A stretch of DNA of 64,000 bases. Source: Ignavibacteria bacterium. Its GTDB lineage: Bacteria > Bacteroidota > Ignavibacteria > Tepidaquicellales > Tepidaquicellaceae. Below the pieces are notes generated by a model. It saw only the letters and a program-made list of their open reading frames with translations. It ran no database searches and had not been told where the DNA came from. Positions 8,681 to 16,252 of this stretch are shown here, piece by piece (within the stretch, counting starts at the first letter, position 1; every line of letters starts with the position of its first letter). Made by a program: the position numbers and the translations under genes. Location: assembly GCA_019187405.1 (NCBI GenBank), contig JABAQZ010000025.1:1-64000 (forward strand), written 5' to 3'.

Positions 8681-9277
8681 TTAATTCATTACAAATTTTT
8701 GCAGGAAGTAAAAAATAATTATTATTGAAGCAACAATAACAATCGCCTGTAGAGACCGCTTTTCGGATTTAATGCCGGACTTCAGATTAAAATCAACTTT
8801 GGATTTTATGTCTTCGGGAAGCGCTTTAATTGAAGGCAGAAATCTCCCGACTGATTTAAAATATTTGCTGAACTCCATAGGAAATTTCATTCCGAGAAAC
8901 TCTTCTTCCTTAAGTATAATGCAGTAATATTGGAATATAAAAAACATTAATGCAAATATCTGAAGATATGGAAACAATGCCATGCTCATTATGCCGAGTC
9001 CCGTATAAATCAAAATATTACCGGCATATAACGGATTTCTAATTATAGAGTATGGTCCCTGAGTAATTAAATAAGTTCCACCGACGCCGCTGGTTGTGCG
9101 TGTTTCGCTGCCGGCATAACTTACAGCCCATATCCTTATCAGTTCTCCCGATAAAGCCAGCAGCAATCCGGCAATAATGCTTTGCATTGTCGGTTCGCTG
9201 AAAATCAACATTACGACGACAAATGGAACGGGAATGTAACTTCTGTATCTGAAAAAAAACTCTCCCAGCTCTTTCAT
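8681..9277 (-). CDS. Isoprenylcysteine carboxyl methyltransferase (ICMT)/phospholipid methyltransferase-family membrane protein
   Basis: 198 residues with about five hydrophobic segments. The conserved C-terminal half is recognisable: TQGPYSIIRNPLYAGN (about 90-105), then EEEFLGMKFPMEFSKYFKSV (about 142-161). This R-[NH]-P-x-Y plus E-E-x-x-L pattern defines the ICMT/PEMT-type integral-membrane SAM methyltransferases. The real substrate in bacteria is usually unknown (lipid or small isoprenoid); prenylated protein is not implied. It is the last gene of the minus-strand run that includes smc and the HAD phosphatase, 37 bp after the latter. It is convergent with the secreted protein at 6947-8449, and the 231-bp gap between them shows no clear terminator. 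Confidence 0.75.
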   Translation of the reverse strand: MKELGEFFFRYRSYIPVPFVVVMLIFSEPTMQSIIAGLLLALSGELIRIWAVSYAGSETRTTSGVGGTYLITQGPYSIIRNPLYAGNILIYTGLGIMSMALFPYLQIFALMFFIFQYYCIILKEEEFLGMKFPMEFSKYFKSVGRFLPSIKALPEDIKSKVDFNLKSGIKSEKRSLQAIVIVASIIIIFYFLQKFVMN

Positions 9278-9314: not shown

Positions 9315-10046
9315 TTATCCTCCGGCAAATAAATCTCTCCTTCTAATCTTTGATTCCTGTCTGTGTTTTATACTCCCTGTGTCAATAAGCTTTTTAAGCT
9401 TTTTTGTAATATCAGAAAAATCTCTAAACTCAAAGTAAGTAATGTTATGCTTCCAGCAATATGATGCCAGCGTCCCTTTGGCAAATACAATGTCTGCATA
9501 AGCGCTCACACAGAAATCCGATATTCCATCACCAATGTAAACCGAGATTTCATTATCGTCATCGTTTGTATTGCTCACCAGTATGTTTCTTTTACAGGTC
9601 TCGCATAAAGTGCAATATTCATCAGTGTAAATGTATTCACAGTCAAGAACTTTCGATTTATCATCCCACTTCATTCCGCAGCCATAATATTTCACATCGA
9701 TGCTTTCTCTTTTTAAAATATAATCAATATAATATTCGAGCCCGGCGCTGAGTATTGTAAGTTCGATCCCATTTTCTCTGCAAAAATTCGTAAAGTCCCT
9801 GAAGTGTATGTCAACTTCTTCTTCATCGAGATAATAGTTGAACTTTTCCGGGGAGAATTTTTCTATGAGTTTCAGCTGTTTTGTATTACACTCTCTCGAA
9901 CCTATCCTCAAAGAAAAATAATCATTGCATATCTCCTCAAATGTTTTCCTGTCTGATATGAATTTTCCGAGTGAATTAAACCATACATCTCTTTTGGTTA
10001 TCGTGCCGTCAAAGTCACAGTAAACCTTAAGCCTGAAGTTTTTCAT
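9315..10046 (-). CDS. HAD-superfamily (IB, MtnX/phosphoserine phosphatase-like) phosphatase
   Basis: 243 residues. HAD motif I is DFDGTITK (about 11-18), motif II is the SAG in LTILSAGLEYY (about 100), and motif IV is IGDGISDFCV (about 172-181). The overall pattern matches the MtnX-like/PSPase-like HAD-IB phosphatases that act on small phosphate esters. A Cys-rich segment CTLCETCK (about 145-152) is present and could hold a metal. MtnX proper acts in methionine salvage, but no other salvage gene is nearby, so the substrate is not assigned. The start overlaps the smc stop codon by 20 bp, which implies translational coupling. Confidence 0.72.
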   Translation of the reverse strand: MKNFRLKVYCDFDGTITKRDVWFNSLGKFISDRKTFEEICNDYFSLRIGSRECNTKQLKLIEKFSPEKFNYYLDEEEVDIHFRDFTNFCRENGIELTILSAGLEYYIDYILKRESIDVKYYGCGMKWDDKSKVLDCEYIYTDEYCTLCETCKRNILVSNTNDDDNEISVYIGDGISDFCVSAYADIVFAKGTLASYCWKHNITYFEFRDFSDITKKLKKLIDTGSIKHRQESKIRRRDLFAGG

Positions 10047-13000
10047 CTGATTTAAACTTCGTTTCGACTATTGTCGTAACTCCCGATTCTTGCATTGTAA
10101 CTCCGTATAATCTGTCAACGGTTTCCATCGTCCTTTCGTTGTGAGTGATTAAAATGAATTGTGTGTTTTCCGAAAATTTTCTAATCATCTTGTTAAATCT
10201 TCCGAGATTTGCAACATCGAGAGGAGCATCTACCTCATCAAGCACGCAGAACGGCGACGGCTTTACAAGGTAAATCGCAAATAACAGCGCAATCGCTGTC
10301 AGAGTTTTTTCACCTCCCGAAAGCAGTTCGATAGAAGTCGGTCTTTTACCTCTCGGCTTTGCGATGATTTCTATCTTAGCTTCCAGCGGATCTTCATTTA
10401 CATTCCCTTCTTCGTCTTCATCATAAACGATTCTTAAATTAGCTTCATCACCTTCGGAAAAAAGTTCTTTGAAAATCGAAATAAAATTTTCCCGTATTTT
10501 TTCAAATGTATTGAGAAATCTTTCTCTGGCTTCTTTGTTAATTCTGTCAATGGTTTTTCTAATGTCCTTTTCAGATTCTATCAGGTCTTCTTTCTGCTCG
10601 ATAAGCTTCTGCAGCTCCGCTTTCTCATTCTCAAAATCTTCAAACAATATCTGCTGATAACCTCCGCCGAGTCTTTTCAGCTTTTCATTCAGCTCATCAA
10701 TCTGATTTTTTGAAGCTATAAAGTCAAAGTCTGCAAACTCTTCCTTTAAATTTCCGCTGTCATAAGAAATGTCCTTCTCATATTTTTTGTAAAGATAATC
10801 TTTTATCTGCTCTGACTTTATTTCGTTTTCTTTAATTTTAATCTGAGCATTTATTAGCTTCTGAGATATGCCGTCAAAATCTATTCTAACCTGTCTTTGT
10901 CTGAGATCAGTATCATGCTGCTCATTTCTTTTAATCTCAGTTTCATTTTTAAGTTTATCAATGCCAGATTCCGATTCATCCAATCCTGATTTCAGCTCAG
11001 CAAGCTCCACATCATTTTCTTTCATCACATCATTTAGCATTTTTATGCTGCTTTCATTTTCCTGAATTGTCTTTGTATTGGAATTAATGCGGTTCTTTGC
11101 AAATGAAACAGCCGAAATTATACTCTGAAGATTATTCTCGTCGTTTTTATGCTCATTCTTAACTTTTAAAAATTCAATGTTAAAATTATTATAATCTGCA
11201 GATTCGGCAGAAAACTCTTTCTCAATTTCATTAAACTCATTCGTTAGAAAAATTAACTCTTTATCAAGATTATATTGTTCGTTTTCAGATTTATTCACTT
11301 CTTCTATCAATATATTAATTTTTCCGCTGAGTATTTTATTCGTCTCGGAAACTGATTTATAAGAATCTTCATTTGCCGTGATGGAATTATTTATCTGTTC
11401 AATTTTAAAATCAATCTTGGATACTTCATTCGATGTTTTGTCAAATTCAGATTTTAAGTTTTCATATTCGGCTTTGTATTCATCTATTAAAATTTCTGTC
11501 TGTTTTGACATCAGATTTTCTGATTCCGATTCGAGCTTTGCAATATTTCCCTTTACAATCTCTGCTTCTTCATTTAGCGAATCAATCTTCTGCTGTCTTC
11601 CGAGTTTTACAGTTTCAAGATTAATTGCTCCTCCAGCTCTTATAAATCCGCCGGTATAAATGTCTCCATCAAGCGTAATGAATTTGTAATAATTATCTTC
11701 GGCAAACTTCTTTGCCGTTTTAAGATTGTCAACTATGACAAATTCATCAAGAATGTATTTAATTAGTCTTTGATACTTTTCGTCTTTGCATTTTACAAAT
11801 TTATCCGCAAACCCATAAACACCGGTTTTTCCGATGAATTCAGGTTCGTCGCTTATCAAATAAAACAATTCCTGCGATTTGTAATTTAATAAGTCATTAA
11901 TAATAAATGTAACTTTGCCTTTTTCGTTTTCTTTCAGCAGATCGATTAACCTGTCTGCATTATTATAATTATCTACAATAAGATAATTTGAAATCTCTCC
12001 CAGAGCAGTCTCGATTGCTATTTTAAATTTATCTTCAACTTCCAGCAAATCAAGTACCGTATTGACATTCTTTTCTTTTACATCTTTTACCAAAAACTTT
12101 ACTCCTTCAGCAAAATCATCAAGATTTTCAGTTAGGTTGTTAAGATGTTCGATCTTGCTTAAGATTCCGTTTAACTCTAATTTTTTATCAGACAACTCTT
12201 TGGCGATGCCTGAAATTTGTTTTGAAAGAAATTCTGCCTCATCTTCTTTCTCTTTGAGAAATCTGCTTTTATGTCTGAGCAGATCATCGGTATCTTTCTG
12301 AAGAATTTCAAGATCGTTTTTCTCCTTCATCAGTTCTTCTATTTGCAAAATAAATCCTGCATTTTGCCCCGAAAGTTTTTCAAGCTGCTGGAGATTGTTT
12401 TCGAAGTTGAGTTTGTTTTCCTGATATAGTGATTTCTTTTCTGTTACCTGTTTGTTTATTTCTTTAAGTTTAATGCCGAGCTCCATCAGCTCAGATTTTT
12501 TTTCATTTATGACTTTTATTGTTGCATCCAACTTTGATTTCTTCTCATTAAGCGAGTTTCCCGAAATCAAAATGGTATCACCTAGCACTTTAATCCTGTT
12601 TTCAGTCGATTCTTTTTTCTCCAGATTTCTGTTCATGCCGGCTTCTGATGTTTCATTTTCATTTTTAAGCCGGAGAATGTTATCATTTAAGTTGCTTAAT
12701 TTTTCACCAATAACGAGATTATCTTTTTCTTTTCTGTTAATTTTGTCTTTAAGTATGCCGAGCTTTTCATTTTGAATGTTAAGATTATCTTCAAGCTGTT
12801 TCAGTTCGTTTCTAAGCAGGTCAAGTTTAACATCGTTTGAATTCATTTCTTCGGATAAACTTGCTTTTAAAGTTAGATTGTCACCTTCCTTGCTTTTTAT
12901 GTCGGATATTTCAGATAAAAGCATTTTAAACTCATACTTTCCGGTTTTGAGCTCAAGCGATTTAAGCTCTTCCGATACTAATTTTGCTTCTTCATTTCTT

Positions 13001-13629
13001 TTTGCCTGTCGTTCAAGGGCGTTGACATTTCTTTGCTTTTCCCTGATGATGTCATTTACTCTTAATAGCGTCTCATGTACTGACTCAAGTCTGTTGAATG
13101 TAAGATCTCTGTTATGCTTGTATGATACTACTCCGGCTGCTTCCTCAAACAACTTTCTTCTTTCATGCTTAATGTCGGAAAGAATGGTTTCTACCATTTT
13201 AAGTTCAATTACCGAATAAGCATCTGGTCCTATGCCGGTATCGATAAATAATTCTTTAATGTCTTTCAGTCTGACTCTTGTTCCGTTTAAATAATATTCG
13301 GTGTCGCCGCTGCGAAAAAATCTTCTTGCTATCTGAACTTCGCGGAACTCTGTAGGCAGCTTGCCGCTGTCATTCTGAATGGTAACGGCAACTTCGGCAA
13401 TGCTGAGGGGCTTTCGGAATTTCGTTCCGTTAAATACCACATCTTCGCGTTTTCCGCTTCTCAAAGCCTTATCACCTTGCTCTCCAAGCACCCAACGGAG
13501 CGCATCGACTATGTTGGATTTACCTGAACCGTTTGGTCCGACGATCGCGCATACGCCGCTGTCAAATTCTATTGTCGTTTTTTCGGCAAAAGATTTGAAT
13601 CCGAAAATTTCTAATTTTGATAAGTACAA
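10027..13629 (-). CDS. smc: Chromosome segregation protein SMC
   Basis: 1,200 residues, the usual SMC length. Walker A GPNGSGKS is at 31-38, followed by ALRWVLGEQGDKALRSG. Two long Lys/Glu-rich coiled coils flank a hinge at about 515-680 (GVYGFADKFV, LDGDIYTGGFIRAGG). The C-terminal ABC signature LLSGGEKTLTAIALLFA (about 1105) and Walker B FCVLDEVDAPLD complete the ATPase head. The protein forms the condensin dimer that compacts and segregates the chromosome with ScpA and ScpB, which are not encoded here. The gene starts only 4 bp after the stop of the GH2-like membrane protein upstream and overlaps the phosphatase gene downstream. Confidence 0.96.
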   Translation of the reverse strand: MYLSKLEIFGFKSFAEKTTIEFDSGVCAIVGPNGSGKSNIVDALRWVLGEQGDKALRSGKREDVVFNGTKFRKPLSIAEVAVTIQNDSGKLPTEFREVQIARRFFRSGDTEYYLNGTRVRLKDIKELFIDTGIGPDAYSVIELKMVETILSDIKHERRKLFEEAAGVVSYKHNRDLTFNRLESVHETLLRVNDIIREKQRNVNALERQAKRNEEAKLVSEELKSLELKTGKYEFKMLLSEISDIKSKEGDNLTLKASLSEEMNSNDVKLDLLRNELKQLEDNLNIQNEKLGILKDKINRKEKDNLVIGEKLSNLNDNILRLKNENETSEAGMNRNLEKKESTENRIKVLGDTILISGNSLNEKKSKLDATIKVINEKKSELMELGIKLKEINKQVTEKKSLYQENKLNFENNLQQLEKLSGQNAGFILQIEELMKEKNDLEILQKDTDDLLRHKSRFLKEKEDEAEFLSKQISGIAKELSDKKLELNGILSKIEHLNNLTENLDDFAEGVKFLVKDVKEKNVNTVLDLLEVEDKFKIAIETALGEISNYLIVDNYNNADRLIDLLKENEKGKVTFIINDLLNYKSQELFYLISDEPEFIGKTGVYGFADKFVKCKDEKYQRLIKYILDEFVIVDNLKTAKKFAEDNYYKFITLDGDIYTGGFIRAGGAINLETVKLGRQQKIDSLNEEAEIVKGNIAKLESESENLMSKQTEILIDEYKAEYENLKSEFDKTSNEVSKIDFKIEQINNSITANEDSYKSVSETNKILSGKINILIEEVNKSENEQYNLDKELIFLTNEFNEIEKEFSAESADYNNFNIEFLKVKNEHKNDENNLQSIISAVSFAKNRINSNTKTIQENESSIKMLNDVMKENDVELAELKSGLDESESGIDKLKNETEIKRNEQHDTDLRQRQVRIDFDGISQKLINAQIKIKENEIKSEQIKDYLYKKYEKDISYDSGNLKEEFADFDFIASKNQIDELNEKLKRLGGGYQQILFEDFENEKAELQKLIEQKEDLIESEKDIRKTIDRINKEARERFLNTFEKIRENFISIFKELFSEGDEANLRIVYDEDEEGNVNEDPLEAKIEIIAKPRGKRPTSIELLSGGEKTLTAIALLFAIYLVKPSPFCVLDEVDAPLDVANLGRFNKMIRKFSENTQFILITHNERTMETVDRLYGVTMQESGVTTIVETKFKSDEKLQA

Positions 13630-13633
13630 TTAT

Positions 13634-16252
13634 TCAACCGTTTAATTTATTTACGAGATCAATTATCTCAATTGTTCCCGTAAAGAAAAATAAATAAGAA
13701 TAAACTATTGCAAAAATAACAAATATGATTATGAATCCATATAAATAAACTTTTCCCGTCCTTATGTCAAATAATGTCTTTGCTCCGAGAAAAATCCTGT
13801 TGAGATAAAGTATTACAAAAATTATAAATCCCCAGCATGTGATGGTAATAAACTGCGGATTTGATTCAGAAACTTTATACAAGACCGTTCCAAGAAAAAG
13901 AAACAGCAACATCGGCAGGCTTGACCATACAGATATTGAGATAATGTTTTTAAAATAAGATTTTCCTTTTGTGTAAAATGAAATGAAGTATAAAAAAAAT
14001 GACGTAAAGAACATAAACAAAATGTTAAAAAATGTCAGCAATGAAATCATATACAGCTTGTTGTTAATGATTTCGCTTGCAGTGATTTTAAACGTATCAT
14101 TCGGAAAAAGTTTTGCAAGTATCATGTCGGCAGAATTATCAGCCCTGTAAAAATATAATATTGATGAAAAAAATAATGATAATCCAAGCGAAATCGTGAA
14201 TGCCAGAAGTATATTATAACCAGATGTAACAATCATCTGCTCTTTTACGAGATTGAAAAAATATGTCGGCTTATAAAGGCATCTAATTATACCCGAACGG
14301 AATTTTTTGTCTCTGTTAATGAAGTAAAGTATGATTACAATTGTAATTATTCCTATAATAATAAAAGAATACGGAAAGTCCTGAACAATATTTCCTTCCT
14401 GAATTCTCTGCAAATCTTCTTTATGCAGAATTCTTCTTACAAATTCTGCAGATCTTTTCTGTTCACGGTTAAAAGTAAATAATCCGCTGGTCTTTAAAAA
14501 TTTGTTGTTGTCGAGAGGATAATTTAAAGGATTTTCGGAATTCCAATCTGCATAAGATGAAATAAAATTTCCGAATGCAGGCTGGCTGATGACATTATAA
14601 CTTTCGCTGATAAACTTCATCTGTGCTTCCTGAGATCTTATGTCGCTGAAACCGTTTGTATTGTCGTTTTGAATGCAGATTCCGTAATTGGAGATGAATA
14701 AATTTGAGTTCTTTCTGTTGGGTGAAATGCGGCTTCGCTTAAAAATCTCCGAAGCTGCCTTTTTAATGGTTTCAGCATTGCGCTCATAAAAATTTATTCC
14801 GACAAAATCCACAGTCTCTGAACATATATCCGTAAAGTATGCTCTTGAAGAGTAATATGTAAATCTTCTGTTTAATGAATCAGCTAGATTTGCGGCTGCT
14901 TTTGTATAATTGAGTCCTTCTTCAGATGAGACATCAAAATCATTTCCAATACCCCATGCAAATATGCAAGGCGAGTTTCTGTCTCGTTCGATTATTTCTG
15001 CAAGATTATTTATTCCAAGTCGTATGTATTTTTCATCACCAAGATAATAATCAGACAATTCGTTAAACGGTACATCCTGAAAAAGATAGAGTCCCAGTCT
15101 GTTGCAGAGAGCTACTACATAAGGATGAGCGCTTCTGCCCGGAACCCTGATGGCGTTAAAACCGAGAGATTTTATATTTCGAAGATCATTATATGTTGTG
15201 TTATAATCAAGCGCTGAAGCAAATTTTGGCTGGTCTTCGTAATAATTTATTCCGTTAAGCTTAAACGGTTTACCGCTTTTAAAAATCTGACCGTTGCTGT
15301 ATGTATGATTTGTAAAGCCCGTTTCAGTATAAAGTATGTCAAGAATTTTTTCATTCCCGTTTTCAATCACAGTCTCTATGATATAAATTTCGGGAGATTC
15401 GGATGACCAAAGTACAGGGTTATTCAGCTTAAGTGAATTTTCTGTCTTAACGGTATTATTGTCGCCGATTTCAAATCTTATTTTTTCACTTTTGACAGAT
15501 TCAGAACTGTCTGATTTTCTGTAAATTTTTGTATAAATAAAAAACTGATTCGATTCCGTTGTATCAATGAATTTATATACATTTGAAGATTTTACATCGG
15601 AAATATTTTTGATATTTACGGCAAGCAGATTATCTATTTCATAATTTATAATTGTATTTAATATAAACAGTTTTGGAACTGCAACAAAGTATATATCTTT
15701 ATCTATGCCTCCGTAAATTTTGGAATAATTAATCTGTCCGGATAATGGAACTGTATTTTTGAAATTTATCTCGCTGTTAACGCTGATAAAAATTTCATTG
15801 CTCCCGGTCAATGTACCGTCTATAAGCGGATTAATTATCGGAGTAAAACCTCCTGTATGTGTAGAGATGAAATTATTGTTTATTTTGATTTCACATTCGT
15901 AGTTTATTCCCTCGCATACAAGTATGAAACTGTAATTGTTCAGTAATTCCTGAGGAACATCAAATTTTCTTTTAAACAACACAATACCATCATAATCATA
16001 AGCAAGAGGTACTTTGAATTTACCAAAACTCAATCCATTGTTGAAAGATACATCCCATGTTCCGTTAAGATTAATCTTTGCTCTGTAAGGTGAGTCTGAA
16101 AACAAATTGATATTGCTGACAGTATCAGGCGAAGTTCTTTCAAAGATTTTAATTTGGGAATTTATAAAATCAGTAAAAAATAACAGAATAAATAACGAAA
16201 GAATAATTCTGAATCGGGTTTTTAAACTGATTTTTGGAATCATTAATTTCAA
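13634..16252 (-). CDS. GH2-like (beta-galactosidase fold) protein fused to a multi-pass membrane domain; probable pseudoenzyme
   Basis: 872 residues. It has a signal peptide or membrane anchor at 11-32. A GH2 sugar-binding/jelly-roll domain follows (NLNGTWDVSF at about 61, FKRKFDVP at 93), then an immunoglobulin-like domain, then a TIM barrel (GINYYEDQP at about 334, LGFNAIRVPG at 363, LYLFQDVPFNE at 388). In active GH2 enzymes the acid/base Glu lies in an NE motif; here the segment reads WGIGND, giving Asp438. The nucleophile segment, usually S/T-E-Y/F-G, reads SNYG, giving Asn522. Both catalytic glutamates therefore look replaced. After about residue 630 come roughly six hydrophobic helices (630-645, 680-703, 733-757, 775-790, 800-820, 838-856) resembling Yip1-type membrane domains. 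It lies immediately upstream of smc. Its role may be sugar binding or sensing at the envelope, which is inference. Confidence 0.72.
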   Translation of the reverse strand: MKLMIPKISLKTRFRIILSLFILLFFTDFINSQIKIFERTSPDTVSNINLFSDSPYRAKINLNGTWDVSFNNGLSFGKFKVPLAYDYDGIVLFKRKFDVPQELLNNYSFILVCEGINYECEIKINNNFISTHTGGFTPIINPLIDGTLTGSNEIFISVNSEINFKNTVPLSGQINYSKIYGGIDKDIYFVAVPKLFILNTIINYEIDNLLAVNIKNISDVKSSNVYKFIDTTESNQFFIYTKIYRKSDSSESVKSEKIRFEIGDNNTVKTENSLKLNNPVLWSSESPEIYIIETVIENGNEKILDILYTETGFTNHTYSNGQIFKSGKPFKLNGINYYEDQPKFASALDYNTTYNDLRNIKSLGFNAIRVPGRSAHPYVVALCNRLGLYLFQDVPFNELSDYYLGDEKYIRLGINNLAEIIERDRNSPCIFAWGIGNDFDVSSEEGLNYTKAAANLADSLNRRFTYYSSRAYFTDICSETVDFVGINFYERNAETIKKAASEIFKRSRISPNRKNSNLFISNYGICIQNDNTNGFSDIRSQEAQMKFISESYNVISQPAFGNFISSYADWNSENPLNYPLDNNKFLKTSGLFTFNREQKRSAEFVRRILHKEDLQRIQEGNIVQDFPYSFIIIGIITIVIILYFINRDKKFRSGIIRCLYKPTYFFNLVKEQMIVTSGYNILLAFTISLGLSLFFSSILYFYRADNSADMILAKLFPNDTFKITASEIINNKLYMISLLTFFNILFMFFTSFFLYFISFYTKGKSYFKNIISISVWSSLPMLLFLFLGTVLYKVSESNPQFITITCWGFIIFVILYLNRIFLGAKTLFDIRTGKVYLYGFIIIFVIFAIVYSYLFFFTGTIEIIDLVNKLNG

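What the first reader, a model, noticed from the sequence alone, without database searches (positions are those of the whole stretch)
13634..16252. GH2-like pseudoenzyme fused to a membrane domain, one step upstream of smc
Both catalytic glutamates of the GH2 TIM barrel appear replaced (Asp438 in WGIGND, Asn522 in SNYG), and the barrel is followed by about six membrane helices. A dead glycosidase in an envelope protein suggests a glycan sensor or lectin. Its stop codon is 4 bp before smc, an odd and tight partnership with chromosome segregation.
Basis: partly seen in the sequence, partly recalled or inferred. Interest (0 to 1): 0.6.

Follow-up and report, generated by a model that had tools for sequence, protein, structure and literature searches.

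The report
Dead glycosidase on a membrane domain
A gene just ahead of the chromosome-organising gene smc encodes a sugar-cutting-enzyme fold that has lost its cutting residues and is fused to a Yip1-type membrane domain; nearly every member of this bacterial class keeps it, usually in the same place, but its job is unknown.

Summary
The gene (minus strand, 16252..13634) encodes a signal anchor, a complete GH2 body of beta-glucuronidase type, one linking helix and a five-helix Yip1 domain. AlphaFold2 gives pLDDT 89; Foldseek matches GH2 enzymes at E about 1e-38. Both catalytic Glu positions are replaced (Asp438, Asn522). Across 89 full-length relatives both columns drift; only two, both Kryptonia-type, keep both Glu. 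Loss of the active site is thus a family trait. 285 of 294 class genomes have a match, normally full length. The gene lies directly upstream of smc in 19 of 28 family-level groups of the class that could be judged, and in all four groups outside the class that carry it; median gap about 10 bp. The nine exceptions form one clade, so the linkage looks ancestral and broken once. The glycan sensor/lectin reading is not supported: the old sugar pocket is not conserved. SMC could touch only short cytoplasmic loops, and ScpA/ScpB are present elsewhere. Most likely an inner-membrane envelope protein whose GH2 body is a periplasmic scaffold or binding module, co-transcribed with smc. Function unproven.

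The parts
13634..16252 (-). GH2-pseudoenzyme / Yip1 fusion gene (872 codons from TTG; likely start ATG at 16243)
16160..16225 (-). N-terminal hydrophobic helix (residues 10-31), signal peptide or anchor; directs the GH2 part to the periplasm (inferred)
15734..16084 (-). GH2 N-terminal sugar-binding-like (jelly-roll) domain, residues 57-173
15317..15670 (-). GH2 Ig-like domain, residues 195-312
14432..15295 (-). GH2 TIM barrel, residues 320-607
14939..14941 (-). Asp438 codon at the acid/base Glu position (UidA E413)
14687..14689 (-). Asn522 codon at the nucleophile Glu position (UidA E504)
14225..14311 (-). basic, conserved loop (residues 648-676), the main predicted cytoplasmic segment
13703..14272 (-). 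Yip1 (PF04893) membrane domain, residues 661-850
10027..13629 (-). smc, 1200 aa, TTG start 4 bp after the stop of the GH2-Yip1 gene
9315..10046 (-). HAD-IB (MtnX-like) phosphatase, third gene of the run; overlaps smc by 20 bp
8681..9277 (-). PEMT/ICMT-type membrane methyltransferase (best NCBIfam hit LmtA, below its cut-off)

Best explanation
It is an inner-membrane protein of a family characteristic of this class (Ignavibacteria, with Kryptonia) and present in some other classes of the phylum. A periplasmic GH2 beta-glucuronidase-type body, derived from an active enzyme and catalytically dead in almost all lineages, is attached to a Yip1 membrane domain. Most likely the GH2 body has been kept as a folded scaffold or binding module for another envelope component, protein or glycan, and the Yip1 domain anchors it and may help assemble membrane complexes, as the Yip1 protein YknW does in Bacillus. 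It is made together with smc from an old operon, which would tie its dose to growth. Shown: domains, residue loss, class-wide conservation, synteny. Inferred: topology, loss of activity, scaffold role, co-transcription.
For: Fold: pLDDT 89, pTM 0.86, best Foldseek hits all GH2 enzymes, E 2e-38. Catalytic columns over 89 relatives: acid/base D33 G21 E17 N8 S4 Q3; nucleophile S16 R16 N14 G8 E8 Y7; both Glu in 2. The nucleophile column is more variable than 84% of well-filled GH2 columns. Kryptonia-type sequences keep GNE...(S/T)EYG and one scores 168 bits to the GH2 barrel against 54 for the window, consistent with an active ancestor. Family monophyletic against 14 other GH2 proteins, SH-aLRT 100. 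Conservation is concentrated on structural Gly/Pro/Trp/Asn and on parts of the Yip1 domain. Directly upstream of smc in 19 of 28 class groups plus f32, f35, f50, f62. One genus of f11 keeps only the Yip1 part before smc. YknW modulates assembly of YknXYZ (PMC4887032).
Against: No ligand, partner, expression or localisation data. No solved structure resembles the Yip1 domain, so its role rests on one distant analogy; the review PMC6682643 reports no function for prokaryotic members. Kryptonia members may be active, so 'scaffold' cannot be assumed everywhere. The Yip1-only copy shows that the GH2 part can be dispensed with.
Confidence: 0.5

Rival explanations
1. Membrane dock for SMC: the conserved basic cytoplasmic loop of the Yip1 part (648-676, consensus RRFRE..RSLFRP.NFF) recruits SMC or the nucleoid to the membrane and couples it to the envelope through the periplasmic GH2 body.
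For: Synteny with smc in 23 family-level groups, median gap about 10 bp; a Yip1-only version still sits before smc in G048; the loop averages 6.1 K/R in the family.
Against: Nine groups keep the gene away from smc; other f11 genomes have smc without it; ScpA and ScpB are present and encoded elsewhere; the loop overlaps the start of an ordinary Yip1 domain.
Confidence: 0.12
2. Glycan sensor or lectin: the dead barrel binds a cell-envelope sugar and the Yip1 domain transmits the signal.
For: Catalytic residues lost with the fold kept; the window keeps some pocket residues (N437, N487, Y489).
Against: Pocket residues are not conserved across the family: the UidA H330 column is Gly, Phe, His and others; W549 is Trp, Asn, Ser, His; D163 is Tyr, Gly, Phe, Asp. 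No signalling domain in the protein.
Confidence: 0.15
3. Still an enzyme, with Asp438 as acid/base and a displaced nucleophile, or with activity only in some lineages (Kryptonia the best candidate).
For: Asp is the commonest acid/base state (33 of 89); Kryptonia-type sequences have the canonical set.
Against: No conserved new carboxylate takes the nucleophile's place: the family-conserved acids (D356, D569, E542) have equivalents in UidA, and the nucleophile column holds 16 residue types.
Confidence: 0.1
4. Envelope-lipid or polysaccharide biogenesis factor; smc is the passenger in an envelope operon.
For: Genes after smc include an LmtA/PEMT-like methyltransferase and LpxB; YidC or PAP2 genes lie upstream in some lineages.
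Against: Those neighbours vary between lineages while smc is constant; housekeeping genes (tpiA, gatB, sucC, hrcA) also occur as neighbours.
Confidence: 0.13

Closest known systems
GH2 beta-glucuronidases / beta-galacturonidases / beta-galactosidases (UidA, LacZ, Tannerella forsythia GUS 8dhe)
   Same: Complete three-domain body and TIM barrel; scaffold residues such as W66, N125, G182, W282, D356, N366, D569, G590, R596 conserved
   Different: Acid/base and nucleophile Glu not conserved, both present in only 2 of 89 members; sugar-pocket residues not conserved; fused to a Yip1 membrane domain
Yip1 family PF04893 (bacterial example: B. subtilis YknW; eukaryotic YIPF proteins)
   Same: Profile over the Pfam cut-off in the window, five membrane helices preceded by a basic segment
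   Different: Carries a 600-residue periplasmic GH2 body; sits beside smc; only 17 of 44 members reach E 0.01
HPSE2 (heparanase 2), a catalytically dead glycoside hydrolase homologue
   Same: Glycosidase homologue without activity, as described in PMC12406646 (abstract only)
   Different: A different GH family, animal, not fused to a multi-helix membrane domain (general knowledge)

Membership tests
Glycoside hydrolase family 2 (active enzyme) | GH2 three-domain fold with TIM barrel | tested here: met
Glycoside hydrolase family 2 (active enzyme) | Glu acid/base (UidA E413) | tested here: not met
   Asp438; family D33 G21 E17 N8
Glycoside hydrolase family 2 (active enzyme) | Glu nucleophile (UidA E504) | tested here: not met
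   Asn522; family S16 R16 N14 G8 E8
Glycoside hydrolase family 2 (active enzyme) | Hydrolytic activity | not testable with these tools
   needs purified protein
Yip1 domain family PF04893 | Score over Pfam gathering cut-off | tested here: met
   31.7 vs 28.6 bits in the window; 32.8 in the stand-alone L070 copy; several other members fall below
Yip1 domain family PF04893 | Five membrane helices, N side cytoplasmic | tested here: met
   helices 677-701, 732-758, 779-797, 800-828, 832-858 and positive-inside charge; prediction only
Yip1 domain family PF04893 | Fold match to a solved Yip1 structure | tested here: inconclusive
   no PDB match with E below 0.8; whether any Yip1 structure is in the PDB is not known here
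Bacterial SMC (neighbour gene) | TIGR02168 equivalog score | tested here: met
   890 bits vs 567 cut-off
Lectin / glycan sensor built on a dead GH2 | Conserved ligand pocket | tested here: not met
   pocket columns variable; a new site elsewhere on the surface was not tested
Lectin / glycan sensor built on a dead GH2 | Glycan binding | not testable with these tools
   needs binding assays
SMC-complex subunit (kleisin replacement) | Absence of ScpA/ScpB | tested here: not met
   both present in 8 of 8 genomes

The most novel reading that the evidence does not exclude
An ancient envelope-to-chromosome link: a pseudo-glycosidase in the periplasm, joined through a Yip1 membrane domain to a conserved cytoplasmic loop, positions or regulates SMC in a whole bacterial class and its relatives.
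Probability: 0.1. Interest if true: 0.85.

Novelty: new variant of a known kind. Interest (0 to 1): 0.5.

Why it matters
A near-universal, uncharacterised membrane protein of a whole class is flagged by two separate signals: decay of an enzyme site with the fold kept, and old synteny with smc. Annotation by best GH2 model would call it a beta-galactosidase or glucuronidase, which is probably wrong in nearly all lineages. Kryptonia, which retain the canonical site, give a natural test of how a glycosidase became a non-enzymatic envelope part, and a knock-out would tell whether smc has an envelope partner.

Tried and rejected
1) SMC fusion: open frames of 2066, 2061 and 2016 aa were reported in G007, G231 and G260. 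In G007 a TGA is followed at once by the in-frame smc TTG; in G260 (L034) the Yip1 part lies in another frame, so it looks like a frameshifted copy. The predicted topology also puts the C-terminus in the periplasm, so a fusion would not be workable. Rejected.

2) Kleisin replacement: rejected.

3) Link to SprA (type IX secretion), 4.3 kb away in the window and divergent in f7/f14/f15: not linked in most genomes.

4) Conserved glycan pocket: not found.

5) PDB matches of the Yip1 part to ribonucleotide reductase or cytochrome oxidase subunit 2: weak, short stretches, not borne out by fold; treated as chance.

6) Paper searches found no description of this fusion or of such an smc partner; the library lacks most subscription journals.

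7) A first wide alignment had no stretch conserved enough for a collection scan.

8) In the tree row L193 is a wrong ORF (an 841-aa frame downstream of smc); it was left out of the tree, with seven other long or distant rows. The second tree (LG+G4, quick search) carries the monophyly claim.

Full report
Observation. The gene lies on the minus strand, 16252..13634, with the smc start 4 bp after its stop. The likely start is the ATG at 16243, because Met4 is nearly invariant.

Structure. AlphaFold2 on the alignment of 44 relatives gives pLDDT 89.1 and pTM 0.86. Foldseek places it among beta-glucuronidases, beta-galacturonidases and beta-galactosidases, with TM-scores up to 0.87 on the target length. 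The Yip1 part modelled alone has pLDDT 88.7 and no solved relative. Hydropathy and charge support N-terminus in, GH2 out, a basic loop 648-676 in and C-terminus out; this is a prediction.

Catalytic site. In MAFFT alignments the Asp438 and Asn522 columns carry Glu in both UidA and LacZ; the phmmer alignment to 6d8k independently sets Asp438 opposite the Glu of IANE. Over 89 family members the acid/base column is D33 G21 E17 N8 S4 Q3 and others, and the nucleophile column S16 R16 N14 G8 E8 Y7 and others; both Glu occur in two, L043 and L123 (Candidatus Chrysopegis kryptomonas). Five further genomes of the same group as L043 also read GNE...TEYG. The Kryptonia-type sequences also have the pocket His, Asn, Tyr and Trp but not the glucuronate-binding R562/K568 of UidA. 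Sampling is uneven, so the counts are not independent events: unrooted parsimony needs 7 changes at each column. Whether Kryptonia kept the ancestral site or regained it is not proven; the canonical motif and nearly complete pocket favour retention.

Distribution. Orthologues occur in 39 of 40 near relatives, and 285 of 294 class genomes have a match. Some weak matches in that count are only partial (f11) or generic GH2. Outside the class, full-length orthologues occur in f32, f35, f50 and f62 and were not found in f37. Most other groups of the phylum that match have only ordinary GH2 proteins, typically over residues of about 87-440. The family is one clade against 14 other GH2 proteins, SH-aLRT 100, no bootstrap.

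Neighbourhood. Of 28 family-level groups in the class with a full-length GH2-Yip1 gene and readable downstream sequence, 19 have it directly upstream of smc on the same strand; so do all four groups outside the class. In f11 a Yip1-only gene sits there in one genus. The 52 junctions have gaps of -1 to 377 bp, median about 10. The nine groups without the linkage (f7, f14, f15, f19, f24, f25, f28, f29, f30) fall in one supported clade, so one break explains them; f27 could not be judged (contig end) and f9 was not fetched. Downstream of smc, HAD and methyltransferase genes are conserved in fewer groups, and upstream genes vary: tpiA, gatB, sucC, YidC, PAP2. The GH2-Yip1 gene is thus the most constant neighbour of smc in this sample. 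The sample was chosen from genomes that carry the GH2-Yip1 gene, which favours that statement somewhat.

Meaning. Decay of the catalytic pair with the scaffold retained argues that the GH2 body is no longer used as an enzyme in most lineages. The old pocket is not conserved, so a family-wide lectin using it is unlikely; a scaffold or protein-binding role fits better. Bacterial Yip1 proteins are little studied: a 2019 review reports no known function for them (PMC6682643), while YknW is cited as modulating assembly of the YknXYZ transporter (PMC4887032). That analogy is the only experimental hint for the membrane part. ScpA and ScpB are present in all eight genomes tested, so the protein does not replace an SMC subunit. 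The link to smc is best read as an old operon, with physical contact possible but unproven.

Verdict. Observation confirmed; pseudoenzyme and conserved pairing upheld; glycan-sensor reading not supported; mechanism open.

Noticed in passing
L070:5429-6205 (G048, group f11): A stand-alone 258-aa Yip1 protein sits 134 bp upstream of smc; the GH2 body is missing. Other f11 genomes (G057, G092, G099) have smc without either next to it.
   Followed up: yes
L034:36-6068 (= L145, PMCM01000331.1): One 2010-aa frame joins the GH2 body to SMC, with the Yip1 part in another frame; probably a frameshift in a draft assembly.
   Followed up: partly
L071:3830-6557 (G063, group f15): The gene is split into two overlapping frames, a 569-aa GH2 part and a 418-aa part that should include the membrane domain; frameshift or true split not decided.
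   Followed up: no
L032:4945-4948; also L033, L042, L048, L081, L089: The stop codon of the GH2-Yip1 gene is immediately followed, in frame, by the smc start codon (gap 0).
   Followed up: partly
window:20582-27178: SprA (type IX secretion) gene 4.3 kb upstream; in groups f7, f14 and f15 SprA lies next to the GH2-Yip1 gene, divergently, but elsewhere it is mostly unlinked.
   Followed up: yes
window:8681-10046: HAD-IB phosphatase and an LmtA/PEMT-like methyltransferase follow smc; in several lineages LpxB comes next. An uncharacterised envelope-lipid-like run.
   Followed up: partly
L058, L061, L065, L071, L072, downstream of the gene: Where smc is not next door, an hrcA-type gene follows the GH2-Yip1 gene in several groups (f14, f15, f29, f30).
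   Followed up: no
window:17292-20402: PD40 beta-propeller plus peptidase MA-like protein of 1036 aa between the SDR gene and SprA.
   Followed up: no
G161 (group f22): A 99% complete genome in which neither smc nor the GH2-Yip1 gene was found at the thresholds used; joint loss or assembly gap.
   Followed up: no
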